NCBI GenBank assembly: GCA_022605955.1
Contig: JAKCOZ010000003.1
Span: 55,366,179 to 55,430,178, forward strand
Length of the DNA stretch: 64,000 nt
Source: Rallus limicola
Taxonomy: Eukaryota; Chordata; Aves; Gruiformes; Rallidae
Reading direction: 5' to 3'
A program made the translations under genes and the position numbers. Each line of letters opens with the position of its first letter. Within the stretch, counting starts at the first letter, position 1. This document shows positions 1 to 41,063 of the stretch, piece by piece. The notes below the pieces were generated by a model. That model worked only from the letters and a program-made list of their open reading frames with translations. It did not search any database and was not told the DNA's origin.

Positions 1-58
1 GTCAGGCAGACAGCTGGACTTGATGATCGTATAGGTCTTTTCTAACCTTAAAGATTCT
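1..58 (+). mobile_element. CR1 LINE, extreme 3' end
   Basis: This is the last part of a CR1 3' UTR. The phrase GGACTTGATGATC, followed by an AGGTCTTTTCTAACCTTA block, matches the conserved CR1 3' end, and a short tandem ATTCT tail follows. The body lies upstream of the window, so length and subfamily cannot be judged. It is non-coding here. Confidence 0.75.
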
Positions 59-645
59 ATTCTATTCTAAAGGAAGCATGACCAGAGATGAGGGAGCCCC
101 TGATGGGAGCAACCAGCTCTGGAAACAGGTCTGGAATTCCAAGCTGGGATTTATAAACTGACTCAGCAGACACATTCATGGTATCCTGATTTGTGGAATT
201 GATTCAGCAAGTGGTGTTGTGAGTGCTTTAACATCAGAGACTGCTTCTTCAATATTGTCATGATCATCAGGTTGAATTTAAAATGTCCAGCCTGTATTCT
301 GGAAAGGCGAGAGCAGCCTTTCTGGAACCTTTTCTAATCCATGTTAGTTCATGGCTTGCCAGGAGTACAAGATATGGATAACTGAAGAGCCTGGTGAAAA
401 AAAATCCAAATGAAACCAAAACAAAAACTTCTGAAAAAAATAGTTAAAGACTGTGTTCTGCTCAGGAAGTGAAGAAATTGTTCGATCATTCGTTTTCCAA
501 TTCCTGAAATAAGTAAAAATACCTTATTGATCTGCTTGTATTGTGCTGTCTTGAAGATACAGAACTGTAGTAAAGAAACCTGGAGTTGTCACATGAAAGT
601 CTACCCAAGAGAAAAGCCTCATTTATGCTCCTGCAATACTCTTGG

Positions 646-816
646 ATCATAGAATCATAGAACCATAGAATCATAGAAGAGTCGGTGTTGGAAGGGACCG
701 TAAAGATCAAGCTCCAATCTCCCCTGCCATGGGCTGGGACACCTCTCACTAGACCAAGCTGCCCAAAGCCCCATCCAACCTGGCCTTGAACACTGCCAGG
801 GATGGGGCAGCAACAG
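646..816 (-). mobile_element. CR1 LINE, 3' end segment (left of a nested LTR)
   Basis: The segment begins with tandem ATCATAGA units, the reverse complement of the CR1 3' tail. The reverse complement of the conserved CR1 3' UTR follows (GTTGGAAGGGACC, CCCCATCCAACCTGGCC, CCAGGGATGGGGCA). The copy stops in the middle of the UTR at the edge of a long LTR and resumes at 2010, so the two parts are one element. It is non-coding and old, with many substitutions. Confidence 0.85.
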
Positions 817-2009
817 TGTTGCAGTTTTGCATAGTTGGCTACTGAGAGAGGGCCAGGGCTTACAGAAAATGGCTGCTGGAATCTTCTGCAAGCCTGCTTA
901 TAGTGCCTCTCAGAATCACATATAGGAGAGAAAGACTCCACCAGAACACGGAGTGCCAGGAAGGCTGCAGTTTCGGCCCGTTGAGGGCATTGGGATGTCT
1001 ATTTGCATATAAATGTAAGCAGTTGACAGACACAAAAGGCCAGGAAGGCTGGGGGTGGGGAGTAGACAGCCCAGGTACCCGGGCAAGTGAGTTTGCCCCT
1101 GCAGCCCGAGCTGATGGAGTAGCGGAAGGAAAGGACCCATGGAGGAGGCAGAGACCCGACCTGCCCGGTGGAGAGGCTCCAAGCTGGATGGAGCCGGGGG
1201 AGACATAGAGAAGATGCCGTGACTTATGTTGGGATGAGCCCCTGCCAGCACAAGCGACCTACAGAGATGAGTGAAACAGGTTTGCTGGAGGAGGCATCAT
1301 AGCCCCGTGGAGGACTGGGACTGAGAGACACTGTGATTTGTTGCTGCCTGCCAGAGCACAGATGAAGCCCGGTGGGAAGAGATTTGCCTTGGAGAAAGTT
1401 CGTGCAGGACTGTCTCTCGTGGGTGAGATCCTACGGTGCAGCAGGGGGAGGCTGTGTGGAATGGATGCCCCCATCCCAGCCGAGAAGGAAACCATCTTGC
1501 AAGAGACTGACCAAAGCCCCCATCTCCTAGTTCCTGCCCCCCTGTCCTGTGCTGCAAGTAGGAGAGGGGAAGAAGGGAGCAAAATCATGTCAAAAAGGAA
1601 GTCTACTTTAGAATGGAGGGGTGGGGGGAAGGTGTTACCGAGACCCCCATTTTCCCCAGTCCCTGCCCCTCCTGGGCTGCGACCGGGAGGGAAGAAGGGA
1701 GCAAACTTCTAACTAAAGCCTGCTGAGGAGGGAGTGGTGGGGGGAAAAGTGTTTACCTGGTTTGCATTTGTTTCAAGATTGTTGGTTGCACTCCTGACTG
1801 GTTCTTTTTCACTGTTTTTCTCTTTAGTGTAATAAATTAGCTAACTTTTCTCTTCAGCACTCTGTGTTGAGTCTGTTTTGCCTGTGTCATTAACGAGTTT
1901 GCCTCTTGAGCCACACAATTATGTTATTTCTCCCCTGTCCAACTGAGAAGGGGAGTAATAGACTGATTTTGGTGTGTGTCTGGCCTTTGTACAGGGCTCA
2001 ACCATCACA
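817..2009 (+). mobile_element. Solo LTR, long type (copy A), nested in CR1
   Basis: The element is about 1.19 kb, starts TGTTGCAG and ends ATCACA, giving the TG...CA termini of an LTR. It interrupts a minus-strand CR1. The flanking 5-mers are AACAG (812-816) and CACAG (2010-2014), a one-mismatch target-site duplication. Orientation follows the AATAAA at 1831-1836, about 170 bp before the end. Relatives are the copy at 44988-46366 and the two halves at 6673-7494 and 9568-9905. No proviral interior is present. A 5-bp duplication fits an ERVL-like or related avian retrovirus, but the family was not named by search. Short open frames inside (such as 1338-1712) have no recognisable domain. Confidence 0.8.
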
Positions 2010-2690
2010 CACAGTTTCTCTGGGCAACCTCTTCCAATGCCTCATCACCTTCACAGGGAAGAATTTTTTCCTAATATCCAATCTAAATCTACCCCCTTCC
2101 AATTTTAAATTATTTCCTCTTGTCCTATCACTCCTTGCCCTTCTACATCCATCCCCAGCCTTCTTCTAAGTCCCCTTCAGGTACTGGAAGGCCACTGCAA
2201 AATCTTCCCAGAGCCTTCTCTTTCTGGGCTGAACAACCCCAACTCCCTCAGCCTGTCACTGTAGGAGAGGTGGTCCAGCTCTCTAATCGTCTTTCTCCTC
2301 TGGACCTGTTCCAACAGTTCCATGTCCTTCTTACGTTAGGGACTCCAGAACTGGATGCAGTACTCCAGGTGGTGTTTCAGAAGAGTAGAGGGTAAGAATC
2401 ACTTCCCTTGACCTGCTGGCCAGACTTTTTTTGATGCCGCCTGGGATATGGTTGGCCTTCTGGGCTGCAAATGTGCATTGTTGAGCTTCTTGTCCATGAG
2501 CATCACGGAGTCCTCTGCAGGGCTTCTCTCTATCACATCATTTCCCAGCTTGTGTTGATGATGAGGACTGCCCTGACCCAGATGCAGGACCTTGCACTTG
2601 CTCTTGTCAACCCCCATGAGGTTCACATGGGCCCACTTCTCCGGCTTGTTCAGGTCCCCCATCCTTCTGTTGTATCAACTGTACCACAGA
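2010..2690 (-). mobile_element. CR1 LINE, segment continuing right of the nested LTR
   Basis: This continues the copy at 646-816 through the rest of the 3' UTR and the C-terminal part of the second ORF on the minus strand. Landmarks are TTCTCTGGGCAACCT, the region for the end of the polymerase, and GACCCAGATGCAGGACCTTGCA near 2580. The minus-strand frame 2399-2662 contains recognisable CR1 C-terminal polymerase residues but is broken by stops and frameshifts. Homology ends near 2690, the 5' truncation point. Confidence 0.85.
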
Positions 2691-5600
2691 ATGAATCTGC
2701 TGATGTCAGTTGAGAATATCAGAGACAGCTGTGTTAATGGTTGTGTATTTCCACTTGTTGGAGAGGTTTAGAAGCAGAGAATTGTTTTAAATACAGACTA
2801 GGAAGTGAGGCAAGAAATAAAAGTATCCTTTCATCTTGTTTCTGTCAAATACAGAAATACATCTGCGTTTATTGTCATCATTTGTCTGGATAAGTCCATC
2901 TTTTCAGTCCAAATACTCTCAGATTTTGAATGCCAGTCAAACTGGAAACATTGACTGTCCCAGTCTTACTTCTCATTATGACAGTAGAAATGTATTCATA
3001 ATGGGAAAGCATTACAGTTAAGTTTAAAAAACTTTTTCTTTGCAGGTTTGGAATTTGTTACTCAATTGTAATGTAGGAGCATAGGCACAGTCAAACTGTC
3101 AACATATATTATTAGCTTAAATGCTAATACTACATGTTGGAAGAGCACCGGCTATGTGAGCTGGCTTAAGATGTCCTTGGATCAAGGTGCCATCATTGTT
3201 ACTTCTGTCTGGATCGAGACATAACTCCTGGGCTAACTCCCTTTATTTCACTGATAGTAGGCATTGTAGACAGGTTCCCTAGGTCTCTTCCCCTTAATAC
3301 TTCTATGAGTCTGTAGTTATGAACATTTTAGAGCTAAATCTCAGCATATTACGTATAGCTTTCTGTCTTAAGAGATGCAATTACAACACCTATTTGACCT
3401 TTTTGTTTAGGAATCCCATGATAGGCTTTTAAGTACACAGTTTCAGATGGGTGGAAGAATTAAAGGACTCAGACAGAGCAATTGTTTGGAACATGATGAA
3501 TGCACTTGTGGAATGACTTTGAACATGTAAACTCTTGAACTGAGCCTAGAAATTCTTTTAACTGTGCTTCGTATAAACATTTCACATCCTGCTCCATAGC
3601 AAACCTGTGCCCCTACTATGCTGAGATAAGATTAACTTGTAGTGCTTTAAAGTATGCAGAAATTGTTTAACATATAATCTTATAGAATGTTTTTATTCCT
3701 TTTTAGCAGAACATTTACATTTTATCTGAAGAAAAAGTAATATCCTGTTATAACAACATTAAAGACTTGTTTGAAACTTTAATAAAGCAAATATAATACT
3801 GGCAAAGCTTTATACTAAAATATGGCATTTAATTGGCTCAGTCTCATGATAGCAGCAGCAAAGCTATTGTTATGTTCTTTATCACCACTTATACTGGCTG
3901 TTATATTAATCACTTCCCTCCAGCTTGCTGCCTTTCCTCTGAAGCAAGAAAACTTTCTGCTTTAAGAGGAAGTGGGGATAGGACACAGAAGTTGGAAGGA
4001 CAGAATGTAGTGGTTTTCCTTTTCAGATCTAAAATGTAAAGGCAGGTGATCTTGTCCAGGAATTTAAAAAAAAAAAAAAAAGAAAAAGAAAAGTAGATTC
4101 CAGATTCATGCATCTTAAATCCAACCAAGTCCATCTTCCTACTATTTCCTGTGGACTGGCTGTGGGCCGCAGGAGGGTACCCTGCCAATAGAAAACACCA
4201 AGCATAGAGAATTGAGAGGAATTTAGGATGTGTGAATTAGAGCCAATGACTATATACAGGCATAGAAACGCAGTTATGTTGCCATTTTAAATCACTTCAA
4301 AGACCCCACACAGTTATAGGAACCTAATTTTAAGTAAGTTGGCTTGGGTATTTTGTTTAGGGTTTTTTGTTTGTTTGTTTCCACAGATCTTTTGGTTTGC
4401 TGCAATGAGAACTGTACCACATTCAATTATTCTGAAAATTCACAGCTTTTGAAAAACAGTACAATACCAACAAAACAAAAAAAAATCTAACATACTGTTT
4501 GGTTTGCTCTGGAGTAAGCTCAAAGGAAAAGTTGTTCTTAACAGAGAAACTATGCTTGCTAATTTAATTTTTTTCTTTTTTGTCCTATTGATATATGTGT
4601 TATAGTAAGACAGGCAAATGTTTCTCTCCAAGTAAAGAAGTTTTCTATGGAGCCTTGACTTTCATAACTTCAGGGAAGTCACTTTTCCTGGAAAATGCAA
4701 AATATGTAGAGGACGAAGGAAGGAATTGAACATATTTGTAGCAACATACTCCTACTTTCAACAGCAATTAAAAGCTATTTTTAAAAAGCACCAGAGATAT
4801 ATTGCCCTTTCACAACATCAGAAAGTTCCATGCCTTTCAATATTAAATTGTCAGAAATTTCTATATATATTCAGAGCGTGTAATTTGTTCAGGGAAAAAT
4901 ATCTTCTTTCTATCTGTATAATCTCCTGTGGTTTTATTTCCATTCTGCACAAAACACCAGCTCTGATGCTTCATTGCTAGATCCTTCAAGCAGCATGTTT
5001 ATGTGTTTTGGTACCACTAGCAAGCACCATAGAACATTCCTCTCTCCTTAAGGATCTGGTCCAAATTGCAACGATAACTTAGAAATCAGATACTTGGCTT
5101 CTGGAAGCCTATTCTCAGACTTCATTTCTCACCAAAATTCTTATCATATCTCCCAGCCCACCTGGAATACAAGAAAAGAACACGTTCAAGAGAACCTTAT
5201 TTCTCTCAACTTTTAAATGAACTGTCAAAAATCCCATTGTTGGCATAAATCCCTTAAGTAACATGGAGATTTAAATGAAGTAAGTCTATTAATGGCACTG
5301 TAAAAGATGACATATTCTTAGTAGAACATCTTAAGCACGCTGTGATTGAAATGTGTGTTTTATCTAGCAAAGGGAGGAGGCAGAAATAGAACCACATGCA
5401 TTTAGTTCTGTGGGTCTGCAGCCCTGAATGGAGGATGACTGCAGGAGCCTTAACTCAGCTTGTCCGTCTTGTCTTAGTTCTAATTTAAGCACAACTATTT
5501 CTGACACCATCTGCATTCAGGATTAGAAGTAGACAATGTACTAAATTGGAAATTTGTAAAGCCTGGAGGAGTAATGTGCCTTCAGTTGCATTCTATCCCA

Positions 5601-6435
5601 ATTTTTTGTGCCTTGCTCCCACCTAGGGAGTGATGGCTCTTTGTGTTCATTTACATTGTCAGTCTAAAAAACACCATGACTACCCAGAACAGAGAAATTC
5701 CACTCAGAGGGCCACCCAAATGTTGATTTTTGTGGCCACCCAGGCCCTTGCAGGTTAGTGAAATCCTAGAACTCCTCCATAGAGTTAGATCATAAGGAGA
5801 ATTATAGCTGTGCTACATATACCCTCCACAGTGATGGCTTTGGGACTCCAACTAATGGGGTAGCATCACCATAATTTATATATATCATTAACCCCTGTGT
5901 CATGAGAACCTAAGTTTTCTTGCCAATTACAATTATCCTAATTAAGAAGCATATATCAGGCTAATTATTACCCTGCTTTAGTATCTGAAATCATCCTGTC
6001 TTTGGTCTCATGCCTGAAAGTCTAAAGAAACTGACTGCAATTAAAAAAAAAACCACTCCACAAACCTCAATATGCCAGTTGTAACTGGGCCAAGCAATGA
6101 GTAATAGGAACAATGTTTGCAACAATTCTGCATGCATAAACACCAAGGAAAGATAGCCTAGTTATATTGGGTGGTCGAAAGAGGTATTAGCAACAAAAGA
6201 GGAAGGACATAAAAGAAAAAAATCAAATCCCTCTACCACCAATTCCCCAGTTATTATAAGCAGCAACTTCTTTCTCCAAAGACTGGAGGATACAGTTTGG
6301 AACGGGCAGATACAATCATGATTTGAACTCAAGGTTTAAGAGGAAGCAAACCTAGGTCTTGTTCTTTCTCTCCCTCCATCTCCACTTGAGAACTTTCTTC
6401 CATGAGAATGTATTAGGAAAAGCAAGACACCAGAC
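2691..6435. other. Unique AT-rich non-coding stretch
   Basis: No recognisable gene or transposon was seen. Open frames are short and lack known motifs. It contains an A-rich run at 4066-4093. It may be intergenic or intronic. Confidence 0.5.
4066..4093. repeat. Poly(A)-rich low-complexity run
   Basis: A run of about 16 A is followed by GAAAAAGAAAAG. There is no adjacent retrogene body that I recognise. Confidence 0.8.
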
Positions 6436-6672
6436 AAGGTGAAATGGCACGAAGCTGTGCCAGGGCAGATTCAGATTAGATGTTAGGAAAAATTTCTTTA
6501 CTGAAAGAGTTGTCTGGTCTGGAAAAGGCTGCCCAGGGTGGGGGTTGAGTCATCATCCCTGGATGTGTTTAAGAAAAGGGTAGAACATGTAGCTAGAGAT
6601 ATGGTTTAGCATAGGACAGGAACGGTTGGACTTGATAATCTTAAAGGTCTTTTTCAACCTTGTGATTCTGTG
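6436..6672 (+). mobile_element. CR1 LINE, 3' end with tail
   Basis: This plus-strand CR1 3' end begins in the last codons of the polymerase (TTCAGATTAGATGTTAGGAAA, then the CCTGGATGTGTTTAAG region). It runs through GGTTGGACTTGATAATC to an ATTCTGTG-type tail. It joins directly to LTR half B at about 6673, and that junction is interpreted as an inversion breakpoint. Confidence 0.85.
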
Positions 6673-7494
6673 AAAAGGCCGAGACCCCACCTGTAGCCTG
6701 TGAAGAGGCCCCATGCTGGAGCAGGTGGAGACATAGAGAAGACGCTGTGACCCACATTGGGCACCAACCCTCTGCCAGCACTTGCAGCCCATGGAGAGAG
6801 ATGGAGACACAGTGATAAGCGAGGGAGAGATCCGTGCTGGAGCAGCGTTGCTGACGGAAAGCTGGTGACCCCATGGAGGACTGGGACTGAGAGACACTGT
6901 GATTTATGACTGCCTGCCATAGCAGTGACCCACGCTGGGGCAGCTGGTGAAGACCTGAAGCCCTGTGGGAAAGGACGCAAGTTGGAGAAGTTCGTGAAGG
7001 ACTGTGCCCTGTGGGTGGGATCCCATGGTACCTCAGGGGAAGGGTGTGTGGAATCAATACTCCCCCCAGCTAAGAAGGAAACCAGTTTTTGAGGAACTGA
7101 CTGAAAACCCCATTTCCCCAGTCCCTGCCCCTCCTCATGCCATAGTGGGGAGAGTGGAGAAGAAGGGAGTGAAATCATGACTCAAGTAAATTCTGATAAG
7201 AGGGGAGGAGTGGGGGGAGGTGCTTTAAGATCTGGTCACACTTCTCATTATCTGACTCTGGTGTTAGTGGGTGTGCAGTGCAGTGTGATAAATTAGAGAG
7301 GTTTTTTATTCTTTTCTTTATTCTGTGTTGAGTCTGTTCTGCCCATGACACTAGTTGCAGAATGATTTCTCCCTGTCCTTATCTCAACTCCTAAGCCTCT
7401 CAATATATTTTTTTCTCCCATGCCCAGCTGAAAAGGGGAATGATAGACTGACTTTGGTGTGCATCTGACCTTCAGCCAGGCCTAAACCATCACA
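6673..7494 (+). mobile_element. LTR half B (long-type LTR, distal part)
   Basis: The sequence parallels copy A from about 1150 to its end. Shared blocks include GGAGACATAGAGAAGA, GGACTGGGACTGAGAGACAC, the TGTGTTGAGTCTGTTCTGCC block and the terminal AACCATCACA. The first 330 or so bases of the LTR are missing here and are found in opposite orientation at 9568-9905. The AATAAA of copy A reads GATAAA here. The 5-mer after its end, GTGAA (7495-7499), is the exact reverse complement of the TTCAC that follows the other half. Confidence 0.8.
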
Positions 7495-7858
7495 GTGAAC
7501 TGTACAAAGTTCAACAAGGCCAAGTACTAGGTCCTGCATATGGATCAGTGCAATCCCTAGCACAACTATAGGCCGAGAGGAGAATAGATTTAGAACATCC
7601 CAAAGGAGAAGGACTTGGAAGTGTTGGTATGTGAAGCTCAACATGAGCTGGTAATGACTACTTTAGCCTGGGTTGTATCAAAAGAAGTGTGACCAGTAGG
7701 TTGAAGGAGGTGATTTTCCACCTCTAGTCTGCTCTCATGAGACCTCACCTGGAGTACTGTGTCCAGTTCTGGGGTCAAATATGACTGTGCAGGCCAACTC
7801 CTACACTCAAGGGCTGAAAGACTCTCTAGAAAACATAGGTGAAAGGACAATTAAGAAA
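7495..7858 (+). mobile_element. CR1 LINE, C-terminal polymerase segment (inverted part)
   Basis: The sequence matches the plus-strand CR1 region after reverse transcriptase: AAGTTCAACAAGGCCAAGT, GGAGAAGGACTTGG, and CACCTGGAGTACTGTGTCCAG. An internal deletion of a few tens of bases lies near 7790, and homology fades near 7858. It begins at the point of the CR1 consensus where the segment at 9906-10885 (minus strand) ends, so the two look like parts of one element. Confidence 0.8.
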
Positions 7859-8057
7859 GATTTATATAATAATAACAACATAACAACAACTCCAAAAACA
7901 GGTGATTTAATCTCTTCTTCTTCTATTACAATTTAAATTATGCTCACTGTCTTTTTCTGATCTTTTTTAATCAAAATCTTAATCAGCATCCTAGTGTTAG
8001 ATATGACCATGCTTTTCCACCAGAATGAACATCCCAATGTTCCCATAACTGATGTGC

Positions 8058-8109
8058 AGGATTTGAAATTACCCCTTAGGTAGGGGTAGGATTTGAAATT
8101 ACCCCTTAG
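8058..8109. repeat. Tandem duplication, period 30 bp
   Basis: The 21-mer AGGATTTGAAATTACCCCTT(A) occurs at 8058-8078 and again at 8088-8108, separated by GGTAGGGGT. The two copies are identical, so the duplication is probably recent. Confidence 0.9.
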
Positions 8110-8142
8110 CTTTCTTTTTGATGGTCTAGATACATTGAGATA

Positions 8143-8162
8143 TCTAGATCTAGATCTAGATC
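8143..8162. repeat. Short TCTAGA palindromic repeat
   Basis: About three units of TCTAGA, each a palindrome in itself. A short repeat with no sign of function. Confidence 0.8.
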
Positions 8163-8842
8163 CTAAAATGACTTTTTTCTACTTTATCATTTTTGCGTTT
8201 GAGGTTATGGTGGTTTTGGGAGGGTTGGTTTGTTTTTTCTCTCAGCTCTTCAACTTTCCATATTCTACTTTGAGTATCAGAACCAGATATGGCACAATAT
8301 CCAAATTTTGATCATGCCAAATCATTAGATTTGTTTCAATTGCACATTTTCCTCCTTAAATAACCAAGAATCAATTAGCATTTTTTTTATCAGCACATTG
8401 GGTGATACTTTTACTGGTGACAGTAGAAGGCTTTCTCTAAATTGGTGGCTTCCAAACCAAATTCCTTTTGTTTAATCCAGATAGAGACAGGACAGTCTGA
8501 AAATCTTGTTTCATTTGAAAACAGTTTCTCAATTAAATATAAATAAGATTCACTTAGTTCTTCTGCCCAGAAATCGAAGTATTCCAAACCACTAAGTATT
8601 TTTGAAAACTTTGGCCAATGATTACGCCTTTCATCTGAGTCTGTGCACCAAGGGCCTAAGGTCAGACTGAAAAAAAAAAAAGATTATATGAAAAACCTAG
8701 TAGGATATCTGAGGGAAGGACGGAAAACTGACCAAAAGTTCAGTGGTTCCATTTTTTTTTCCATTAGACCCTTATGGCTGTCACTTAACTTGGACTGGGA
8801 ATCCCACCAAACGGGAGGCTCCATCATTTTCTGGCTGCTCTG

Positions 8843-9567
8843 GCTGGATTTTTTCCCATTTATCACTGCCCTTTGGGCCCAGCCATCCAGCCAGTTTTTA
8901 ACCCAGCTGAGGCTGTGTCTGTCCAGGCCAGTGGTAGCCAGTTTCTCAGTCAGAATGCCTTGAGAAACTGTGTCAAAGACTTTACTGAAGTCCAGGTAGA
9001 CCACATCCACAGCCTTCCCCTCATCCATTAAGCGGGTCACCTGGTCAATAGAAGGTGATCAGGTTAGTTTGACAGGATCTACCTTTTGTAAACCCATGTT
9101 GGCTAGGCCTGATCCCCTGGCCATCATACATGTGCTGCATGAAAGCTCCCAAGATGACCCTCTCCATGATATTCCCCAGGACTGAGGTCAGACTGACAGG
9201 CCTGTAGTTCCCCGGATCCTCCTTCCAGCCCTTCTTATATATGGGTGTAACATCTGCCAGCCTCCAGTTGAGTGGAACTTCCCCAGTTTGCCAGGATTGC
9301 TGGTAGATCATGGAAAGGCATTTGACTAGCACATCTGACAGCTCTCTCAGTACCCTTAAGTGGATCTCATCTAGCCCCATTGATTTGTAGGTGTCTAATT
9401 GGCCAAGTAGGTCACTAATCATTTTTACCTGAATCATGGAAGCTTTGTTATTCTTGCCCTCCCTGTCAGTCAGCTCCTAAGGATGAGTACTCAGGGAATA
9501 TCTTACTTTACCATCAAAGACTGAGGTAAAGAAGGAATTAAGTACCTCAGCCTTGTCCTCATCCTTT
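8843..9567 (-). mobile_element. CR1 LINE, reverse transcriptase fragment
   Basis: Two minus-strand frames, 9045-9437 and 8684-9040, together cover the N-terminal part of a CR1 reverse transcriptase. The first has the DPGNYRPVSLTSV block and the following QHGF..GRSC block. The second has the YLDFSKVFDTV block, where the catalytic motif A aspartate lies. A frameshift separates them. The catalytic YADD-type motif, the C-terminus and the 3' UTR are missing. The subfamily differs from the CR1 at 9906-10885. Homology on the low-coordinate side fades somewhere between 8760 and 8843. Confidence 0.85.
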
Positions 9568-9905
9568 TTCCATGGGCTGCAGCAGGGCTTCTTTTTCTCC
9601 AGCAGCTGAGGCACCTCCTTCCTCCCCCTTCCCCAACGTTGGTGTCTGCACAATTTCCTACATCTTCTCACTCCCTTCTCTGGTGGCAAAATGCAGCTGC
9701 TTCCAGGGTTTTTTTTCTTAAATGTGATTCACAGAGGTGCTGTGACCAACGCTGATGAGCTTGACCTTGGTCAGCAACAGCTCTGGCCTTGAATCAGCAG
9801 ATGTTCACTCTCTGGGGCCTGCAGAAAGCCTCCAGCTGCTTCATGAAGCAGCCCCCCCTGCAGCCCCCCTCCTCCACCAGAACCCAGCCCCGCATAACTG
9901 CAACA
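9568..9905 (-). mobile_element. LTR half D (long-type LTR, first part)
   Basis: The sequence aligns with 46070-46366 of copy C. Shared blocks are CCATGGGCTGCAG, TGGTGTCTGCA, TCTCTGGTGGCAAAATGC, ATGTGATTC.CAGAGG and the terminal CATAACTGCAACA. It ends at 9905 in CA and is followed by TTCAC. Only about 340 bases remain. The missing remainder corresponds to half B at 6673-7494, in opposite orientation. Confidence 0.8.
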
Positions 9906-10885
9906 TTCACACAGGACCACCTGTCAAACCAGTCAAGGTCCCTCTGGATGGCATCCTTTCCCTCCACATCACACAGCTTGGTGTCATAGGCAAACTTGCT
10001 GAGAGTGCCCTCGATTCTACTGTCCGTATCACCAACAGAAGGTGTTAAATACTGCTGGTCCTAATACAGACCTTTGAGGAATACCACTTGTCACTGGTCT
10101 CAATTTGGACATTGAGATGTTGATTGCAACTCTTTGGGTTTGACCATCCAGCCAATTCCTTGTCCATGCAGTCATCTATCCATCCAATCCAAGTCTCTCC
10201 AATTTAGAGACAAGGATGTCAGGTGGGACAGTGTCAAATGCTTTGTACAAGTCTAGGTAGGTGACATGACTTGCTCTTTCCTCATCCACCACACTGTAAC
10301 CACATTGTGGAAGGCCACCAAATTCATCAAGCACATTTTGCCCTTAGCGAAGCCATGTTGGCTGTCACAAATCACCTCCTTGTTTTCTATGTGCCTGAGC
10401 ATAGTTTCCAGGAGGATCTGCTCTATGACCTTGTCAGGCACAGAAATTAGATCCACCAGCCTGTAGCTCCCCAAGTATTCCCTTTTCTTGTTTTAAAAAT
10501 GGGGTTATGTTTCCCCTTTTCTGGTCAGTGGCAACCTCACCAGACTGTCACAACTTTTAAAATAGGGTGGATAGTAGCATACCACATCTGCCAGTTCTCT
10601 CAGGACCCACAGATCCATCTCATCAGGTCCCATGGATTTGTGCACCTTCAGGTTCCCTCAATAGCCCTTCAGTGGGTCATACTTCATTCTGCCAGTAGGG
10701 ACTCCTGTGACTTGGGAAGTGTGGCTAGAGCCCTTGCTGTTGAAGACAGAGGCCAAAAGTTCATTGAGTACCTCAGCTTTCCCCATATCCCAGGTAACCA
10801 CGTATCCTGTTACATTTTGGAACGGGCCCACATTTTCCCTGTCTTCCTTTTATTACTAACATAGATATAGAAGCTTTTCTTTTTA
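9906..10885 (-). mobile_element. CR1 LINE, reverse transcriptase segment
   Basis: Minus-strand CR1 covering reverse transcriptase. Recognisable blocks are CAAGGTCCCTCTGGATGGC, GTGTCAAATGCTTTGTACAAG, AAGCCATGTTGGCTGTCAC and CATCTCATCAGGTCCCATGGA. The frame 10253-10474 keeps residues such as [19 protein letters not shown], but stops and frameshifts break the ORF throughout. The low-coordinate end starts at TTCACACAGG directly after LTR half D. The continuation of the element is the inverted segment at 7495-7858. Confidence 0.9.
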
Positions 10886-12313
10886 GTGGATCTAGAAATC
10901 TCTTTTTCCTTCAATATTATTGGGTCAGCTCTACTGATATTAGAACAAATTACTATGTTAAGGTTCAGAAATTGCGTGTTAGTTCCTACAATCTTTATTC
11001 ATAAAAATGCAAGTACAAATTTTCATGTAAATGCAAATACATCTCTATAAAATATGCAGTGCATTGTTTGCATGCATAGAACTTCTTCAAATACAGTCCA
11101 ACATAAGCAAAGCAGGAGGTGTCTTCAAAAAATCATCTCTCAGTCTTTGTTTGGAGCTTAAGTGGAAACATGTCTTTGTATGACTACATGCATGTATATG
11201 CTTCATATACATAAAGATTCAACTACAGTATTTGGGCTTTAGACCAAATCCATCAAACTTTGGTATTCTCATTTAGAATCCTTCTGTGTTGAAATACCAT
11301 CTCTTGTACTATCAGTCAACTTTGCTTACTTGTTTGTTTTGTAGATGGAATGCAGTTGGGTATCTGCTCCTGCCTTTTGTTCACAAAACTAAAGGAAACC
11401 TTTAGTAGAGCTACTCCCAGCAACTCCCTACTTGTTAGGTGCAAGAGTCATCTCTTCCATCATCCATTTTCAGTACATTATTTTATGTTTCTGCCTAACA
11501 GCCACATGGGTCTCTGTGAGCACTGCTTTGCTTCCCAGTTATGGAATGCTAGTTCCCATGATAATCCAGTTTTGCTGGAAGAGTGAGAGGGGATGATGAA
11601 AATTTAAGTTTTGTATGTGTAGAGTGGCACATTGTTGTTCCAGAGCAGACAAGGGAAATTGGTTATTTTACACCTACAGGCAGATATAATTCAAAAAGGA
11701 AAAAAAAAAAAAATCCAATTACTATTACGGAAAGTTTTCTGCAAATTACTACCTGAGGAAAAATGGTGGCAAAAATGTGACATAGTAATTTATTTAAGTC
11801 ACTATTACTCAGCATTCTCATTCTTTGCATCAGATTTATCTCACATCACACAGACAACTGCATAATTCCGCTTCGTGGCGATGTGTTACAGATGACTGAG
11901 CTATAGGCTTGACTGTTTCCATCAAACTTTTTATTTCAGGTCAACTGAAGTACTGAAGAGTTCCTTCAGTGGATGTTTCTAATTCAGGTATCAGGGGATT
12001 GAAGTCTTTCCATGTATTATACTAATTCCCTCTTCTGGTTCAATAGTGTACAAACACAGAACTTTGGTATACAAATGCCAAAAAAAGTGATCAGAGCACA
12101 CGGAATCATCACTTTGCCTCAGACTACATTAAGTAGTACATGAAAGCCACAAGAAGTTGACTCCTATTTTATTTACACCCCTGTAAAATACGTGTCAAAT
12201 TAAAGCTTGGAAGCTTTTCTTTATAGGGGAAATCAAAATCGAATCCCAATTCCAATAGCTGAAGAATTCAGCATGATCAACATGCCCAACATGGGAGCAG
12301 TGAGTTCACAAAA
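10886..12313. other. Unique AT-rich non-coding stretch
   Basis: No gene, RNA or transposon recognised. Only short open frames without motifs and one poly(A) run near 11700. Confidence 0.5.
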
Positions 12314-12858
12314 TGTAATGCTTTAACCCAGCAGGCAGCTGAAATAACTTCATGGCTGTTTGCTCACTACCCTCTTCCCAGTGGGTGGGGAACAGAACCG
12401 TAAAAGGGAAAAAACCCAGCAAAACTCATGGGTTGAGATAAATACAGTTTATAGGACAGGAAAGGGAGATAATAACAATAGCAAACAACAACATTAAAAT
12501 CTACAAAACAAGTGATGCACAGCACAATTTGTCATTACCCAAAGCCAATGTTCAGCAAGTTCCTGAGCTGTGATGCCTCTTCAGTTATATACAGAACATG
12601 AAGTGACATCATATGGTATGAAATATCCCTTGGGCCAGTTTGGGTCACCTGCCCTGTCTGTGTCCCCTCCCAGCTTCTTTGGCACTCCTTGACTTCTCGC
12701 TAGCAGGGCAGCATGAGAAGCTAAAAAGTCCTTGTCTGCTTGGCAACAACTGAAAACATCCAAGTGTTATCAACATTGCTCTCATCCCAACTCCTAAACA
12801 CAGCACTACACCAGCTAGTGAGAAGAAAATTAACTCTGTCCCTGCCAAAACCAAGAAT
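12314..12858 (-). mobile_element. Solo LTR, short type (about 545 bp)
   Basis: The plus strand reads from a CTTTAACCCAGCAGGCAGCT start, through GGACAGGAAAGGGAGATAATAA and the ATATGGTATGAAATATCCCTT block, to GAAAATTAACTCTGTCCCTG near its end. This is the reverse complement of an LTR family widespread in birds and shared here with 25541-26099 and 52648-53066. The sense strand is taken as minus because the ATTAAA-type polyadenylation signal of the family lies that way; here it is degenerate. No clear target-site duplication remains. No internal region is present, so it is a solo LTR. Confidence 0.8.
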
Positions 12859-13600
12859 TTAGCATTTCTTTGACAATATTTCTTTGTGCCAGCAACCTAA
12901 AGTTTCTAAAAACACTGCTCTATGCAAAGGACTAGAGATAGAAAGACCTTGTTTTAAGTAGAGCTGGATGAAACTTCTCATTCTTTGAAAATGCTGATTT
13001 CTCTTCCAAAAGCATTTTTTTTTTCTGAAATAAATACACTTTTTATTGAAACTTTCACGAGGAATTTTCGCAGATCCAAGGCAGAATTTCAACCCTGGAT
13101 TGACAGAGGCCTTTCTGTCATTCTCTTCTGCAGTCAATGACTGCTCTGAACCATTTAATGACACAACTTAGATTTTCAGAAACAATAAATTTCCTCCTCA
13201 TTATTTCTTTCCCTACTAATTTTGCCTCATCTACTTACTTAATGAACAAGATATTGCCTAAGTCACTGAAAGACAATATTATATGACATTGTCTGTAGAA
13301 ATAGTTACCTATATTAAGTTTTCTTAATTGACCATTGTATTTCAAGGAGTGTCAGTAAAGGATTCTGAAAAACAGGGCTTGAAGGAGCATTGAGATGATA
13401 CCTTGCCGCCATTCATGAGCAGGTATCTTTTTGCCATATCTAAGGTCATTCTTCACAGACCTACAGTGAGTGAAAGTTCTCATTTTCTCTGGAAAACAGT
13501 AGCACAGCTTAACTATTCTTATCACTAAAGAGTTTTTTCCAAAACTAAATGAACTCTCCCATAAATGAACTTTCCCACTAAAATGAACTCTTATAGCTCC
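12859..13600. other. Unique non-coding stretch
   Basis: No recognisable gene or repeat. Only short open frames. Confidence 0.45.
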
Positions 13601-13700
13601 AGTGGACACAGAGGACAGACTATTTCACCACTCTTTGCAGAAGCCTTTTTTGTATTTGAAGATTGCTATCACATCTCCCCTCAGCCCTCTTCTCGCAAGA
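13601..13700 (-). mobile_element. Old CR1-like fragment
   Basis: The stretch GCAGAAGCCTTTTTTGTATT, then GAAGATTGCTATCACATC and CCCCTCAGCCCTCTTCTC, resembles the part of the CR1 3' region that reads TTGAAGACTG.TATCATGTCCCCCCTCAG in other copies. It is short and diverged with no tail, so it is probably an old relic. Confidence 0.5.
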
Positions 13701-16700
13701 ATCCACTTTGAGTCTCAAGATGGGGAGATGCTGGCATATGAATGCAGATTTCTCTGCTTTCCACATCACATGTCTGACTTTCTTCCCAGCGCCCAGAGCA
13801 GAGTTCTTGGCAGCAGCTAATCAGCACATTACAGTTTTGCTCAATGATTTTTGCCTGCAACGCGGCTCTTTGGTCATAAGGCAGTGGAAAGGGACAGTGA
13901 GGGAAGGGAAACAATAGCATGGTTCTCCATTCCTAGGGAAGGGTATGAATGTGTTCTCCATTACATTTATCTGATACAGCTATTTTAATCAAAATGTCAT
14001 GTGAAATGTAGTCATTTGACTTGCAGAAATTTAGGAATAGAACACCAAAACAGTATCCTTTATCAGAAAGACTTGTGATCGTTTTTAAAAGCAAAAACAA
14101 AACCACACAACAGGTTTTTCAATAGGATCTATTTTCCATGAATCACAATGACTGGAAATGATTGTATTTTTAGCCTCTCAAATGCCTTGTGTGGCTGTGT
14201 GAAGCTACTTGAGTTTAGTAACTCTTGCAACTGAGCTCGGTTTCTTTCACCTTGTTTTTGCAGGTGTTTTGTCATAAATTGCTGGTATGCAGGATCTCAG
14301 GTTTGATATTGTAATGCCAAATATTTAACCATACCCTTTAAAAAATCCTTTAGGCCTTGGAAAACCTTTAATCATCACTGCTTGCATAAGATTAACTTGT
14401 ATAACTCATATAAACTGGGTGTCTGCAGCCTGAAAGAATGCAGCCTGGCAGAGGACTGCAGGAATAATGGGTGAGCTAGAAAAAGCATCATTATTAGCAG
14501 AGAAATCATGGCATCTTGATTCTAATTTTTTCCGAATACTGCTAACCGTACAATGCAATGGATCATTCCAGGCACATTTTGGAGTCATAAGCCACAAAAT
14601 AAATGCAAAGAAACTACAGAATTAAAAACTGTGATTTCTTTAGACACACCACATAGACAGTCTTATTTATTCCAGGTTCTGCTTTCTGAAAAATGTTAGC
14701 AGTACCTCAATTTTTCTATCTTCTCTAATGTTTTTTCTTTAATTTCTTGTGATTTTTTTTTTTGAATTTGTTCTTTTGAGTGACTAAGTTGTGCAGTCAC
14801 AAGCCATAGCTGGGTTCACATTATTATCCTTGAGAAATGGGAATATCCAAGAGCTGGCTGATCCTTTACTGTAGTCAAGTAAAACCCTCCAGAACTAGAA
14901 TCAGTAAAATGTGCTTTCTTTCATAAAAGTCTCCATGATTACTCTTTCTTTCCTTACCACTCAGAATCTATTTTGGGCAAGCTTCAAATACAACAGTACT
15001 GGCAGACAGCTCTCCTTACACAGTAGACCGCAGCTACCCACTTTTAGTCTCAATCATCCTGTGACAGAAACAAAACCAAACCAGGCCAGCCAAGACTTAG
15101 TCCCCAAAACAGAATATCATTAAGCACATCCATCTCAAACAACCTTGTTCTATGGCTCATAAAGCATAAACATACCACCCAACTTGTAGAAATGTAGAGT
15201 CAATTAAAATTACTCAGATTGCCTCATTACAAAAACTTGGTAGGATTAGAAGGGACTTAATGAATGATATTGTTATACAGCTACCCAAACTGACCTTAAA
15301 CTACTGTGACACTTTTTCCATGGAAAGGGTCTCCGGACTTCTGTTTTGCTTTTTCTAACCACATTTATCATCCATGGAAGAAGCCTTTTCATTTGTCTTA
15401 GAACTGCATTATTCCACACTGAGCTGCCAACAGCAACAGTGGATTTGATTTCTTTTTAATAAGAAGATAAATTATCTTTGGAGAAAATGGCCAATTAATA
15501 AATACTAAGATGTATTACTAGAGGGTCTTCAGTTATTTCTGAGATATAAACATGCACTCATTTCCAAAATACTTGGAGATTGAGGCAAAACCACCAAGTG
15601 TGTGATAATTCCATTCTCTGAAGATCTCAGTCTCCAGTTTTATAGGGAGAGAGAAGACATTAAAAAAAAAATCCAAGATGGTTGGAGTGACATTCACCCT
15701 ATCCATCCCTTTCCGTTTCATCAAAGCAAGAGAAAAAATATAGTGAAGGCATATTTTTTCTGGTTCGAGTCTTTAGAGTTATATCATTATCAGAAGTATC
15801 TGTAGGTTCTCTGCAAGTGATTGAATATCCAACCCATTTGTCATATATTTCTTTTAAAAGTGAAATAAATCTGTCAATAAAGTCTTAATATATAAGATGC
15901 ATATAAAAAAACCCCAAAGCTATAAAATGCACTAGAAAACCTGGCCCAATTTTATAAAATTATTCATACACAGGCCCAATAAAAGCAAAGCTCTATAAAT
16001 ATCACCTGCTTTGGGAATTTTGCAAGCAGAGCCTTTACGTTGGGAACAATTCTGCATTCTTGAAATTGCATGTAATTTAGCACTTCTTCCCTGAGATTAA
16101 GATGATGTATCTCTACCTTACAGCACTGCAGTGTGCTGTGCTTTTCCAAAACAAAAGATGAGTTCTGAAAGACTGTAGTGCACTTTGGAGAAGGTAAGAA
16201 CATAGATGGCACCCACTTCATATACACAGCATACAGGCAGAGGTACCTCTGAGAAATGTGACTTGAAACCTCACGCAGAGTAGGAAGTCATTTAAAGTCA
16301 GGCAAGAAGCAGTGTAGGAGTATGTCTGTAGGAGGCAATTCCTACACCTCTCTCAAGCCTATAAGACTTCATGGCATGTTAGGTTCCTCCATTACTGTCA
16401 AGTTATTACCTAATCCAGGTACCTATATAAGCAGAACTGATTCCTTTTAGAAGGGGTTATAGTAGCCATGACCTCTAGATAATTATATAAAATACTGCTT
16501 AGCATGCTAATCCAGAATATAGGAGGTCTGGGTCTATCTGACAGCATCTTGATTGCATTCAAACCCACAGCCTGGAAAAACACAGTTTTCCTACAAAGGC
16601 AGCACTAGAACAGTCCTGTCTCCAGCTCTCACACACCAGCAAACACAGAAAAGCAAGTTTGATTTAATGAATGGGAAAGCAAGCAAGAAGGAGTGTTCAC

Positions 16701-29599: not shown

Positions 29600-29852
29600 A
29601 GCACTAATGGCACAAAGCTGCAGCAGAACAGGTTCAGATTAGATATTAGGAAAAAAATTTTCCCCAAAAGAGTTGTTGGGATGTGGAACAGGCTGCCCAG
29701 AGAGGTGGTTGAGTCACCATCCCTGGATGTGTTTAAAAAAAGGGTAGATGAGATACTTAGGGATATGGTTTAGCACAGGACAGGAATGGTTGAACTCAAT
29801 GACCTTACAAGTCTTTTCCAACCTTGGAATTATGTGATTCTGTGGTTCTGTG
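29600..29852 (+). mobile_element. CR1 LINE, 3' end with tail
   Basis: The plus strand carries the last codons of the CR1 polymerase. The frame 29588-29773 shows an [11 protein letters not shown] block and then [20 protein letters not shown], which is characteristic. After the stop comes the 3' UTR and the tail GATTCTGTGGTTCTGTG. It is severely 5' truncated, as is usual for CR1. Confidence 0.9.
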
Positions 29853-35800: not shown

Positions 35801-37860
35801 TTTACAGAGATTTAAGGGCAATTATTTGTTGCTGGGTTTAATCCAATTCTGGTTTGCATCCACAGAAATATTCTAGATCATACATAGACTTAGCCCTTTA
35901 AATATACTAGATCTAACATTTTAGAAAGAGTCTATGATAAGTAAGGACATATTTCTTTGCTTGCCTTGGCTACTGCTTAAACCTGATTAAGGACAGCATC
36001 TCTAAAATAGGAATAGAAGAGAATGCTGTTTGCAGCCTAGCTAAACCAGGGCTGTAGACAAGTTTGTTTGGGAAGATCTTATCTGAGTGATAACTGTTGG
36101 ATACTAATAAAAACAGCTGTCAACTTGATGTGAGTCAGCTTGACCAAAAGACAAGTGCCAGAAGAATCCTAGGATATAAAATTTTGATCGCTTTCTTCTT
36201 TTTCCACATAGCTTCACAAGATACAGTTAATAATTCAGAAGCCATACAAAACTTGAGGATGGTTTGTATCAGCAATATATGCACTAAATATTACAAAGGT
36301 CTTGTTTACACAAGGACTCTTGAGAAATGTAGAGTAATCAATTTAACACGCAAGTGCATTAAGCTCCTGTTCCCTTTACACTGCCACATTCCGGGGCACA
36401 GTGGCTTTTTTTCCGTTTAATCTGATACTATCCAGAAAGAATTAAGAGGTTCCCTCCAAAAAGAGGTCACAGCTAGTGGACAAATCCATTTGTATTTTGT
36501 GATTAGCTCTGGTTGATTATTTTTAACTTTTCTTTTTCATGTGTACACTGGCCTGAGCATAATTTTTGACTCTCCAGACAGGTACATGATTCAGGTACCT
36601 GATGACTGTTGATTTCCAGGCACAGCTGTAAGGTGTGTAGGTTAGAAGACTCCCAGAGAAAAAAAGTTTCTAGGAAAGCTCACTATAGAGCTGTCCTCCA
36701 CAATATCTCTTTCCAATCCCTGCAGCACGGGCATAAAATGTAACCATGTGAACTGTAAGAGGATACAAGCCTTGGGCCTGTTTAAAATAACAGCGAAATA
36801 GGTATCTGTCAGCAATATGTTTTGCATTACATTGGACAGAACATAAAACCAGGAAAACAACATAAATCATTTTATAACATAAGAAGCATTGTAACTGTGC
36901 TATAATTTATGTAAGTTTTTTTCACAGCACTTGATTTCATTCCTGCAAGCCTTCATTCTCTCTTTACTTGGTCCCAATTCTGCTTTGGAAACATCTCAAT
37001 TATTTTAGTACCAGTTTAGCAATTTACCCCAGAGTAGGAAATGGCACTTAGATGCATTAGTCAGGAGCTAAGGGATGGCAATAACAAGGTGAACCAGAGG
37101 AAAAAAGACCAAATACTGATGGATAGGAGAGGTCAAACTCTTTTGTTTCTCCCCAAGTGAAGGAGAGAAAAGGGGTGATGGGGAAGAAACAGGAACAGAC
37201 TCATGAAGAGGGCAGAAGGGACCAATAAGCCTGCATGGTAGAACTTCACCCACAGGTCAGGAATGTTAAACTGAGTCTAGAAAGAGAGTGAAGCACAGAG
37301 AGAAATTCTAAAAAAAAATCCCAGTCTAGTTTAAAAACAGGATTATTTTAAACTTTTTTTCTGGGAAAATTATTCTTGTAATTGCTATTCCAGTTGCCTT
37401 TGAGTTTTCTGTTTACATCTACCTTGTACTAGTGGTTGGACATGGGAATGCAATAGAATTAAAATTCAGAACATACTCTCTGTTATATAATGTAACCTGT
37501 TCTATTGGAGTTATATATGGAGCATGAAAAAACAGGAATAAATTAACTAAATTACTAAATATCTAAAGCAGACATTTAATTTGAAGTTTGGTCACACAAA
37601 AATCACTTCCATTTATGGGCACTAAAGATATGGATTTTTATACCATTCTGCTACATATATCTTGTACCTATATATGCATTACTGCTAGTGATTCTTTTAG
37701 GAAATTAGTATTTCCTTACACATTGTAAGTTTTATTCTGACAAGTAGCTTTTTACCCTTTTTGTAAATTTAGCATGCAGTGCAGCTAGACTTAAACTGTC
37801 CTGTTTTTATCTAAGGATGCAGCTTGATGTTACAACTAAACTAATCTAACTGTAAACTAA
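29853..37860. other. Long unique AT-rich stretch (8 kb)
   Basis: No recognisable gene or transposon body. It contains an A/C-rich simple repeat at 32939-33000 and a short TG/CA stretch with dyad symmetry near 35770-35798. Open frames are short and motif-free. Confidence 0.45.
32939..33000. repeat. A/C-rich imperfect (CAAAC)n-type repeat
   Basis: Irregular units of CAAA, CAAAC and CCAAA. Low complexity. Similar tracts lie at 42287-42325 and 60510-60605. Confidence 0.8.
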
Positions 37861-38333
37861 CCTTCCTTCCTTCCTTCCTTCCTTCCTTCCTTCCTTCCTT
37901 CCTTCCTTCCTTCCTTCCTTCCTTCCTTCCCTTTCTGTCTTTCCTTCCCTTTCTGTCTTTCCTTCCTTCCTTCCTTCCTTCCTTCCTTCCTTCCTTCCTT
38001 CCTTCCTTCCTTCCTTCCTTCCTTCCTTCCTTCCTTCCTTCCTTCCTTCCTTCCTTCCTTCCTTCCCTTTCTGTCTTTCCTTCCTTCCTTCCTTCCTTCC
38101 TTCCTTCCTTCCTTCCTTCCTTCCTTCCTTCCTTCCTTCCTTCCTTCCTTCCTTCCTTCCTTCCTTCCTTCCTTCCTTTCCTTTCCTTCCTTCCTTCCTT
38201 CCTTCCTTCCTTCCTTCCTTCCTTCCTTCCTTCCTTCCTTCCTTCCTTCCTTCCTTCCTTCCTTCCTTCCTTCCTTCCTTCCTTCCTTCCTTCCTTCCTT
38301 CCTTCCCTTTCTGTCTTTCCTTCCTTCTTTCCT
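37861..38333. repeat. (CCTT)n microsatellite, about 470 bp
   Basis: Nearly uninterrupted CCTT units (AAGG on the other strand). The interruption CCTTTCTGTCTTTCC occurs four times, near 37930, 37948, 38066 and 38306. The minus strand gives an open frame of Lys, Arg, Glu and Gly repeats only because no stop codon can arise in AAGG repeats; it is not a gene. Such a homopurine-homopyrimidine tract can form triplex (H-) DNA and is very prone to length change. Confidence 0.97.
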
Positions 38334-38590
38334 TTTTCTTTCCTTCTTTCTTCCTTTCTTACTTCCTTTCTCTCCTTCCTCTCCTTCCTTCCTTTCCTTT
38401 CCTTCCTTCCTTTCCTTCCTTCCTTTCCTTCCTTTCCTTTCCTTCCTTCTTTCTCTTTCCCCTTCTCCTTCCATTTTATTTTTCCTTTTCTTTTTCATTT
38501 TTCCTTTTCTCCTTCTCTTTTTCTTTCCTTCCTTCCCGTGCTCCTTCTTTCCTTCCTCCCCTCTGCCTCTCACGGCCCCACTTTCTCCCT
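38334..38590. repeat. Degenerate polypyrimidine tract
   Basis: This continues the CCTT microsatellite as irregular C/T sequence with few purines, ending in TCCCTTCTGCCCCACCC beside the CpG-dense patch. It appears to be an older, decayed part of the same repeat, or a pyrimidine-rich promoter flank. Confidence 0.85.
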
Positions 38591-38780
38591 TCTGCCCCAC
38601 CCGCCTAACGCAGCGGGAGCAGAAATGGGGGACGCGGGCCGTGCCGGGGTCGGGCGGCGCTGGGCTCGCCGGGGCGGCTGCCGGCAGAGGGAGCGCGCAG
38701 CATTGCTGCTTCGCTGCCCTCGCACCAAACCTCCTTGTCCAGGGCCGGTGCCGGACCGATGCACGTAGCAGGAGCGGGGT
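38590..38780. promoter_or_regulatory. CpG-dense patch (CpG-island-like), possible promoter
   Basis: About 24 CpG dinucleotides occur in some 190 bp, counted by eye, against a very CpG-poor surrounding. A GC box (GGGGCGG) lies at 38671-38677. Short frames cross it on both strands without recognisable motifs. It is shorter than the usual CpG-island threshold. It may be a promoter of an unannotated transcript, an isolated regulatory element, or the GC-rich 5' part of an inserted element that I do not recognise. Confidence 0.4.
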
Positions 38781-41063
38781 TGCACGTTCAAGTCCTTTCC
38801 CATTTATTACAACATCAAAACTGAGATTTAGCGGCTCAACCTGAGTAACAGCTTTCCCCTTGTCCTCACAGAAGGTTTGATACTAGTCAATTAGAATAAC
38901 CACTGTTTATTTAGCCATCTGGTCAGAACTCAAAACTGGGATGTAACACACATGAAATAACTTCTAAAGAACAGGGAGCTAATAGAGCAACAGCTTTGGA
39001 GAGCCAAAAGCTGCCTTGTGGCTCTTACAATTTCCATAAAGCGAGTCAATTTACGTAAGAAAATACCCTCTAAGACAAATAAAGCAACATGCGCTCAAAA
39101 GTCAGGAAAGCCAAATGCTAAGCTTTAACTTCCTCACTTTTAACTCTTCACATTGTACATCCTGTAGTTTTTATGGTAGACCATAAATAACAAAATGATA
39201 CACTAAGGTCTCCATTTAATAAGGAAACCAGGAATAGAAAATAACACGTGTACAACTGGGCCAAGTAAACACTTGTGGAAACAGTCTTAAACTTTAGTGT
39301 TTCCTGAGCCTGGATTGAGGATGGTTTAGACCCACATCTGGATCAAATGATATCACTTGGGTCCTTCTCAGATATGAAACTATGGCATAAGATCTCTTCT
39401 TACACTAATACTACTCAGCTCCAGTGGTTTGGGTTAGTGTATTTAGATTGAAAAGCAACAACTATAAATTTTACCAACAAAGCCATTCATTTGGAAAAGT
39501 TGCAATGCACTCGGAAAGGAGTGAGAAGCTTAAGAAAAAACATCTCGTACTGAGAGAAATTTGGCTTCTTGAGACACCCACATTCAAACAAGAGAGTGTG
39601 CAGTTTATCACAGCTGATAATGATCTGTCTTTCATTAAATTACATCAGAACTGCTACAACAGTTGCAAGTGAATTGTTTCTCATTTACATAAGCACAAGC
39701 TCAATTAAACAAGATACTCAGTTACATTTAAGACATAAGATCAAGCTTTTCAAGAGCCTACCATTTGACATAATCTTGGATTATGACAGGTTTCATTTTG
39801 CCTTTGTGGTTGCAGAAAACTCCTACAGTGAACTCTAGTTCTCTCCTTATTTGTATAAAATATCTTTTTTAGAATGTGCACCTCTTGCTTGGTTTAGAGG
39901 TCTAACTTGGAAAGTGTCTAAAGTAAAATTTAAAGAAAGAGCAATACTGGTGCATGAGACTGTAAATACAGGTGAGTAATTTGGGTGTATTTTTGAGACC
40001 TATAAGAATATAAGAAAAATTGAGATCTATCTTGTATACTGTAAGTAGACAGTAAAGCATCCTGTGTAGACACAGTCTTCAACAACTGCAGAATCCCTGA
40101 AAATGGATCAGACTGAATTTTGAACTGTGAGACACTCAGAGTAGGCACAGTTACATTGATGGCCTGAGGCATGCTATCACAACTTCTTTGGCATATCACA
40201 CTTTCCTCCAAGAGCGGGACTAAATAGGATTAGAAGGAAACTTATCTTTCAGCTTCCCAGTCTTTTCCCCCTGGATTCCAGATGTCCTCCAGGGGCTTTG
40301 CAGATGCTTAAAATTACACCAGCTTCACTTATGTTACCATGTAGGGAACCAAATACACAGCTTCAACCATTCCAGCTGCCAGTGTTATTAGCTACTTTTG
40401 CTCTAAGACATTGGGTGAATGAGAGGCATCTTCCATAGCACCTGTAGGTCTTCTGCATGAGAACATGGGGTTTAATTCACAACAACCTGAGGACTCTCTA
40501 GTTCAAGCGTATGTGTCTTTGATTTGAGGCATTTGCTCTAATGTTTGGTCACTTGGATCTTTGCTCATACCTTTTGTCTGAAGGCCCAAGGGTGTTTCCA
40601 TGTATAGACAGCCCACATTTTAAAACAAAGGCTTTACTCCTACTGATACAGAATTGAAGAGCACTTGGCAGTTCCGGTTGTCTGGTGGACTGGTGGTTCA
40701 GGATGTTAATGTTCCATTCTTTGAAATTCTTGAATTAAGGTTCTCACCATGTGTGTTTCTAAAAGGAATTTGAGGTAGCTATGAGTATCAGAGACTGTAC
40801 AAAGCTATGAAGTACTCACCATGAAAGTTCACTTGGAGTTTTAACTGGATCTGGGGAAAAAAAATCCAAAATCCCAAAACAGTTGCAAGTGCTCCAGGAA
40901 AATCAGTAGCTACTTTTACTTTATCACCTCTCACTCTGTTGGAACTCAGAGCACGTAGATAGGTCTAGAACAACAGTGGGATGAGTCCAGAGGTGCTTTC
41001 CTGAACGGAGCACCAAGTGCTCACAGCCTCTCCAAGCCCAAAGCCTGCAACAAGTGCCCAGAT

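What the first reader, a model, noticed from the sequence alone, without database searches (positions are those of the whole stretch)
6673..9567. A 2.9-kb inversion that cut an LTR nested inside a CR1
LTR half B (6673-7494, plus) and half D (9568-9905, minus) are complementary parts of one LTR. B lacks about the first 330 bases seen in copy A, and D holds just those bases. Beyond the outer end of B comes GTGAA and beyond the outer end of D comes TTCAC. These are exact reverse complements, as expected for one 5-bp target-site duplication if one half has been flipped. The CR1 flanks agree: 7495-7858 and 9906-10885 meet at the same point of the CR1 consensus. Flipping 6673-9567 restores a single minus-strand CR1 with one LTR inside. 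Both breakpoints carry a GAAAAGG-like run in opposite orientation (near 6671 and 9562-9573), suggesting microhomology-mediated inversion.
Basis: partly seen in the sequence, partly recalled or inferred. Interest (0 to 1): 0.75.

Follow-up and report, generated by a model that had tools for sequence, protein, structure and literature searches.

The report
Small fossil inversion splitting an LTR
In this probably avian DNA a stretch of about 2.9 kilobases was flipped long ago, cutting one old retroviral LTR (itself lodged in an older CR1 element) into two opposite-facing halves; the flip is convincingly recorded but is an ordinary kind of genome change.

Summary
B (6673-7494, +) and D (9568-9905, -) are the 3' and 5' parts of one LTR and share no column in an alignment with two other LTR copies. 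Their outer ends carry one 5-bp duplication, GTGAA (7495-7499) and TTCAC (9906-9910). The decisive test is the CR1: joined after the flip with one duplication copy, its flanks read on in frame. Of 120 CR1-type proteins, mostly from one bird, 113 align without a gap across the join; 23 of 24 shifts of the join by 1-12 bases give 0, one gives 1; four wrong pairings give 0. So a CR1, then an LTR in it, then an inversion through the LTR, is well supported. The exact segment is 6673-9568, equivalent to 6679-9562, because both breakpoints share AAAAGG. About 0.2% of random breakpoint pairs share as much, so microhomology-mediated exchange is likely, not proven. The left breakpoint also lies at the 3' end of another CR1 and the 5' edge of a third, so loss there, or a role for that CR1, is not excluded. 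No bird genome could be searched; age, outgroup state and polymorphism stay open. An ordinary small inversion, well documented.

The parts
6431..6672 (+). CR1a: 3'-terminal part of a CR1 copy, just outside the left breakpoint
   Evidence: commonest tblastn edges 6431 and 6606, then a 3' tail ending GATTCTGTG(A); 80.6% identical to 29606-29837
6673..6678 (+). left breakpoint, microhomology AAAAGG
6679..7494 (+). LTR half B: 3' part of the LTR, ending CATCACA
   Evidence: alignment to LTR copies A and C
7495..7499 (+). target-site duplication copy GTGAA
7500..7858 (+).
   Evidence: in-frame continuation of 9911-10885
7859..8839 (.). non-CR1 spacer inside the inverted segment
   Evidence: only short weak matches elsewhere in the window
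8843..9566 (-). CR1b: separate CR1 fragment inside the inverted segment, truncated at both ends
   Evidence: commonest tblastn edges 9566 and 8843
9563..9568 (-). right breakpoint, microhomology (CCTTTT on +, AAAAGG on -)
9569..9905 (-). LTR half D: first ~337 bases of the LTR, beginning TGTTGCAG on the minus strand
   Evidence: alignment to LTR copies A and C
9906..9910 (-). target-site duplication copy (TTCAC on +, GTGAA on -)
9911..10885 (-). 5'-ward part of the split CR1 (CR1c); protein matches start at up to 10881
   Evidence: tblastn with CR1-type proteins
6673..9568 (.). inverted segment (equivalent to 6679-9562)
   Evidence: junction sequences

Best explanation
A simple two-breakpoint inversion of about 2.9 kb. 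Order of events: a CR1 (CR1c) inserted; a retroviral LTR integrated into it in the same orientation, leaving a 5-bp duplication and surviving as a solo LTR; then the segment 6673-9568 was inverted. One breakpoint lay about 340 bases into the LTR, the other between two further CR1 fragments (CR1a and CR1b). Both breakpoints shared AAAAGG in inverted orientation, and the exchange probably occurred there, by microhomology-mediated joining or template switching. Shown: one LTR, one duplication, one CR1, non-overlapping halves. Inferred: that it was one reciprocal event, the repair pathway, and that nothing was lost at the left breakpoint.
For: LTR halves complementary, no shared alignment column. 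Matching GTGAA duplication; chance about 0.001. Ungapped in-frame CR1 join in 113 of 120 proteins, against 0 of 120 in 23 of 24 shifts, 1 of 120 in the other, and 0 of 120 for four wrong pairings. Positive control: LTR copy A, unsplit and nested in another CR1, gives 101 of 120 when one duplication copy is kept. Shared AAAAGG at both junctions; 6 or more shared bases at 0.2% of random breakpoint pairs, 400,000 pairs in each of two ranges. No N in the window.
Against: The second restored junction (CR1a next to CR1b) has no independent support; 0 of 120 proteins cross it ungapped, which is also what two unrelated copies would give. With gaps allowed, matches do cross the shifted joins (69 to 118 of 120) and the wrong pairings (6 to 12 of 120), so only the ungapped count discriminates. 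At the LTR break copy C has about 9 and copy A about 30 bases more than D plus B (my count), so some loss is possible. A 20-base repeat makes B match once inside D's range. D is less like A (57.8%) and C (69.8%) than A is to C there (73.7%). By my count, 100 of the 120 proteins are from one species, and they are only the best 120 of 4134 hits. No orthologous locus could be seen.
Confidence: 0.92

Rival explanations
1. Assembly or clone artefact: the segment is reversed only in the assembly.
For: Raw reads were not available. A published human-chimpanzee survey excluded one inversion as an assembly error (passage of PMC2603318).
Against: No N in the window. The junctions share only 6 bases. Between 2-kb stretches around the two breakpoints only two weak inverted matches were found (28 bases at 82%, E 0.14; 12 bases, E 0.49); the one inverted pair of 40 bases or more listed in 1-14000 lies elsewhere (2341-2389 with 7728-7776).
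Confidence: 0.05
2. Two independent LTR fragments and two independent CR1 fragments that lie near each other by chance.
For: CR1 and LTR fragments are common in the window.
Against: Non-overlap of the halves, identical duplication, and a CR1 join exact to the base would all have to be coincidences.
Confidence: 0.01
3. A variant of the best explanation: inversion with loss of sequence at a breakpoint, for instance two end-joining events or a replication-based template switch, rather than a clean reciprocal exchange.
For: CR1a's 3' end and CR1b's 5' edge both lie at the breakpoint; D plus B lack about 9 bases of copy C and about 30 of copy A at the LTR break (my count).
Against: The same AAAAGG stands at both junctions, as a clean exchange would leave; A and C also differ from each other there, so the LTR difference may be ordinary variation.
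Confidence: 0.3

Closest known systems
Avian microinversions (Braun et al. 2011, PMC3123225; abstract, outline and passages seen)
   Same: Small, cytologically invisible inversions in bird non-coding DNA; that study found no stem-loops or motifs at its hotspots
   Different: Those come from a survey of non-coding sequence of many species; this one is read from one sequence, through a split nested element
Retrotransposon-related inversions between human and chimpanzee (Lee et al. 2008, PMC2603318; abstract and passages seen)
   Same: Inversions of similar size with breakpoints in retrotransposons (49 of 252 are recombination-mediated, 166 bp to 81 kb, median 1452 bp)
   Different: Those 49 recombine between two inverted copies of one kind of element; here only 6 bases are shared
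Human-chimpanzee microinversions with a proposed microhomology-mediated break-induced replication (Potapova et al. 2022, PMC8755829; abstract and outline seen)
   Same: Short inverted repeats at the edges of the inverted segment
   Different: Those are 17-33 bases long; this is about 2.9 kb
REANNOTATE, automated paleontology of repeats (PMC2672092; search listing only)
   Same: Treats repeat fragments left by later insertions and rearrangements
   Different: A general method, not read beyond the listing

Membership tests
Retroviral (ERV) solo LTR | TG...CA ends | tested here: met
   D begins TGTTGCAG on the minus strand, B ends CATCACA
Retroviral (ERV) solo LTR | Short target-site duplication around a single LTR | tested here: met
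   GTGAA on both sides; copies A (AACAG/CACAG) and C (ATTTT/ATCTT) match at 4 of 5 bases
Retroviral (ERV) solo LTR | ERV superfamily and named family | tested here: inconclusive
   A 5-bp duplication suggests ERVL; that link is recalled. No repeat library was available
CR1 LINE | Similarity to CR1-type reverse transcriptase | tested here: met
   tblastn with the best 120 of 4134 protein hits; the name CR1 is recalled, many source names say reverse-transcriptase-domain protein
Microhomology-mediated inversion | Same short homology in inverted orientation at both breakpoints | tested here: met
   AAAAGG
Microhomology-mediated inversion | No long inverted repeat at the breakpoints | tested here: met
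   weak matches of 28 and 12 bases only within 1 kb of the breakpoints
Microhomology-mediated inversion | Uninverted ancestral state seen in a relative | not testable with these tools
   I had no collection of bird genomes; the own-genome search did not complete

The most novel reading that the evidence does not exclude
The insertion of CR1a and the inversion were one event: the CR1 endonuclease cut at an AAAAGG site, the break was repaired against the LTR, and CR1a's 3' end was joined there. Its 3' terminus lies at the breakpoint, and AAAAG also stands at 6418-6422, near its other edge, like a target-site duplication.
Probability: 0.1. Interest if true: 0.4.

Novelty: new member of a known kind. 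Interest (0 to 1): 0.2.

Why it matters
It shows that a split nested element can reveal an inversion, and the order of events, from one sequence alone, and it offers a rare genomic change with two assayable junctions for bird phylogeny. It changes no general view of how genomes rearrange.

Tried and rejected
Chance neighbours: rejected by the sliding-join test. Recombination between long inverted repeats: none found at the breakpoints; CR1b and the CR1c 5' part share only short matches, best 62 bases at 77%. The first crossing test used a loose limit of 15 nt and let the as-lies right control pass (124 HSPs from 103 proteins, by overrun), while copy A failed because both duplication copies were kept (2 proteins); both were changed. 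Copy C gave no protein match in its flanks, so it is no CR1 control. Viral-contig scans: an LTR word gave 0, a CR1 frame gave 3 pattern matches, none confirmed. The own-genome search was sent unchanged six times and never answered. tRNA scan and Rfam scan at gathering threshold: 0. Papers holding all of inversion breakpoint, microhomology, bird and LTR retrotransposon: 0.

Full report
Setting. The window has no N and 39% G+C. Its CR1-type fragments match reverse-transcriptase proteins; of the 120 listed (of 4134 hits) I count 100 from Mycteria americana, 17 from Grus, Hirundo, Anas and Limosa, one from a turtle and two without a name. A RING-type frame has 7 hits, of which the three named ones are from birds. 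So it is most likely bird DNA; the species is not known to me. A tRNA scan and an Rfam scan at gathering threshold found nothing.

LTR. Self-comparison finds two other LTR copies, A at 817-2009 and C at 44988-46366 on the minus strand. B aligns to their 3' part and D to their 5' part. With the flanking bases masked, D occupies columns 2-397 and B columns 408-1557 of the joint alignment, with no shared column. Identities over aligned columns are 69.8% (D-C), 57.8% (D-A), 74.7% (B-C) and 71.2% (B-A); A-C gives 73.7% in the 5' part and 87.6% in the 3' part, so the split copy is the more diverged one. Pairwise BLAST at E up to 0.001 found D-C but no D-A match, and one 20-base match of B inside D's range of C, an internal repeat. 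The ends are TG and CA, and the flanks are GTGAA on both sides.

CR1 test. For the restored order I joined only the two CR1 flanks, with one duplication copy and no LTR. Of 120 proteins, 118 have a match crossing the join by at least 15 residues on each side, and 113 cross it without a gap within 15 residues and with at least 5 of 15 identical on each side. Moving the join by 1 to 12 bases either way gives 0 of 120 by this ungapped measure in 23 of 24 shifts and 1 of 120 in one; gapped crossing persists in 69 to 118 of 120. Four other pairings give 0 of 120 ungapped and 6 to 12 of 120 gapped: as-lies left, as-lies right, CR1a with CR1b, and CR1b with the CR1c 3' part. LTR copy A, also in a CR1, gives 101 of 120 ungapped and 102 of 120 in all, and serves as positive control. 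The proteins are related to each other, so these counts measure precision, not independent evidence.

Breakpoints. The left junction reads GATTCTGTG-AAAAGG-CCGAGACC and the right one, on the minus strand, CCCATGGA-AAAAGG-ATGAGGAC. The shared 6 bases make the flips 6673-9568 and 6679-9562 equivalent. Among 400,000 random pairs of positions in each of two ranges, 0.22% (whole window) and 0.20% (4-12 kb) share 6 or more bases in inverted orientation. This test assumes that the ancestral sequences resembled the present junctions.

The left breakpoint is odd. Most protein matches to CR1a start at 6431, its 3' tail ends at the breakpoint, and the commonest CR1b start is 9566, inside the shared run. 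Either CR1a and CR1b were already adjacent there, or sequence was lost, or CR1a came with or after the inversion. AAAAG stands at 6418-6422, 8 bases before the edge of protein similarity, so a CR1a target-site duplication is possible but not shown. At the LTR break copy C holds about 9 and copy A about 30 bases more than D plus B (my count); A and C differ there too, so this may be loss or ordinary variation.

Subfamilies. Similarity ranks of CR1c pieces on the two sides correlate weakly (rho 0.19 to 0.32, n 30 to 40), those with CR1b from -0.52 to 0.13; but two parts of CR1b itself give 0.03, and two parts of the CR1c 3' side 0.21, so the test has little power.

Literature. Bird microinversions (PMC3123225), retrotransposon-related inversions of similar size in apes (PMC2603318) and a microhomology model for microinversions (PMC8755829) are in print (abstracts, and passages of the first two). 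A link between LTR elements and breakpoint regions in zebra finch is cited in PMC6523648 (passages), and rearrangement by TE recombination in birds is discussed in PMC8665684 (passages). The event is therefore an ordinary small inversion with an unusually complete record.

Noticed in passing
817-2009, flanks 812-816 and 2010-2014: LTR copy A is nested in another CR1 with flanks AACAG/CACAG (4 of 5 alike); the CR1 rejoins in frame with one copy kept (101 of 120 proteins).
   Followed up: yes
50358-50984 (+): Open frame with a RING finger; 7 protein hits, one named E3 ubiquitin-protein ligase Topors-like (Lathamus discolor). Possibly a retrocopy; not tested.
   Followed up: partly
37841-38882: Long simple repeat (GAAGG/CCTTC type) read as long open frames in several frames.
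   Followed up: no
7858 and 8843: CR1c and CR1b both seem to lack their 3' ends where they face the non-CR1 spacer 7859-8839; cause unknown.
   Followed up: no
8059-8161: A doubled GGATTTGAAATTACCCCTTAG (8059, 8089) and a palindromic run ATATCTAGATCTAGATCTAGAT (8140-8161) inside the inverted segment.
   Followed up: no
45265-45691: LTR copy C holds internal repeats; by eye, A and B have fewer copies of the block.
   Followed up: no
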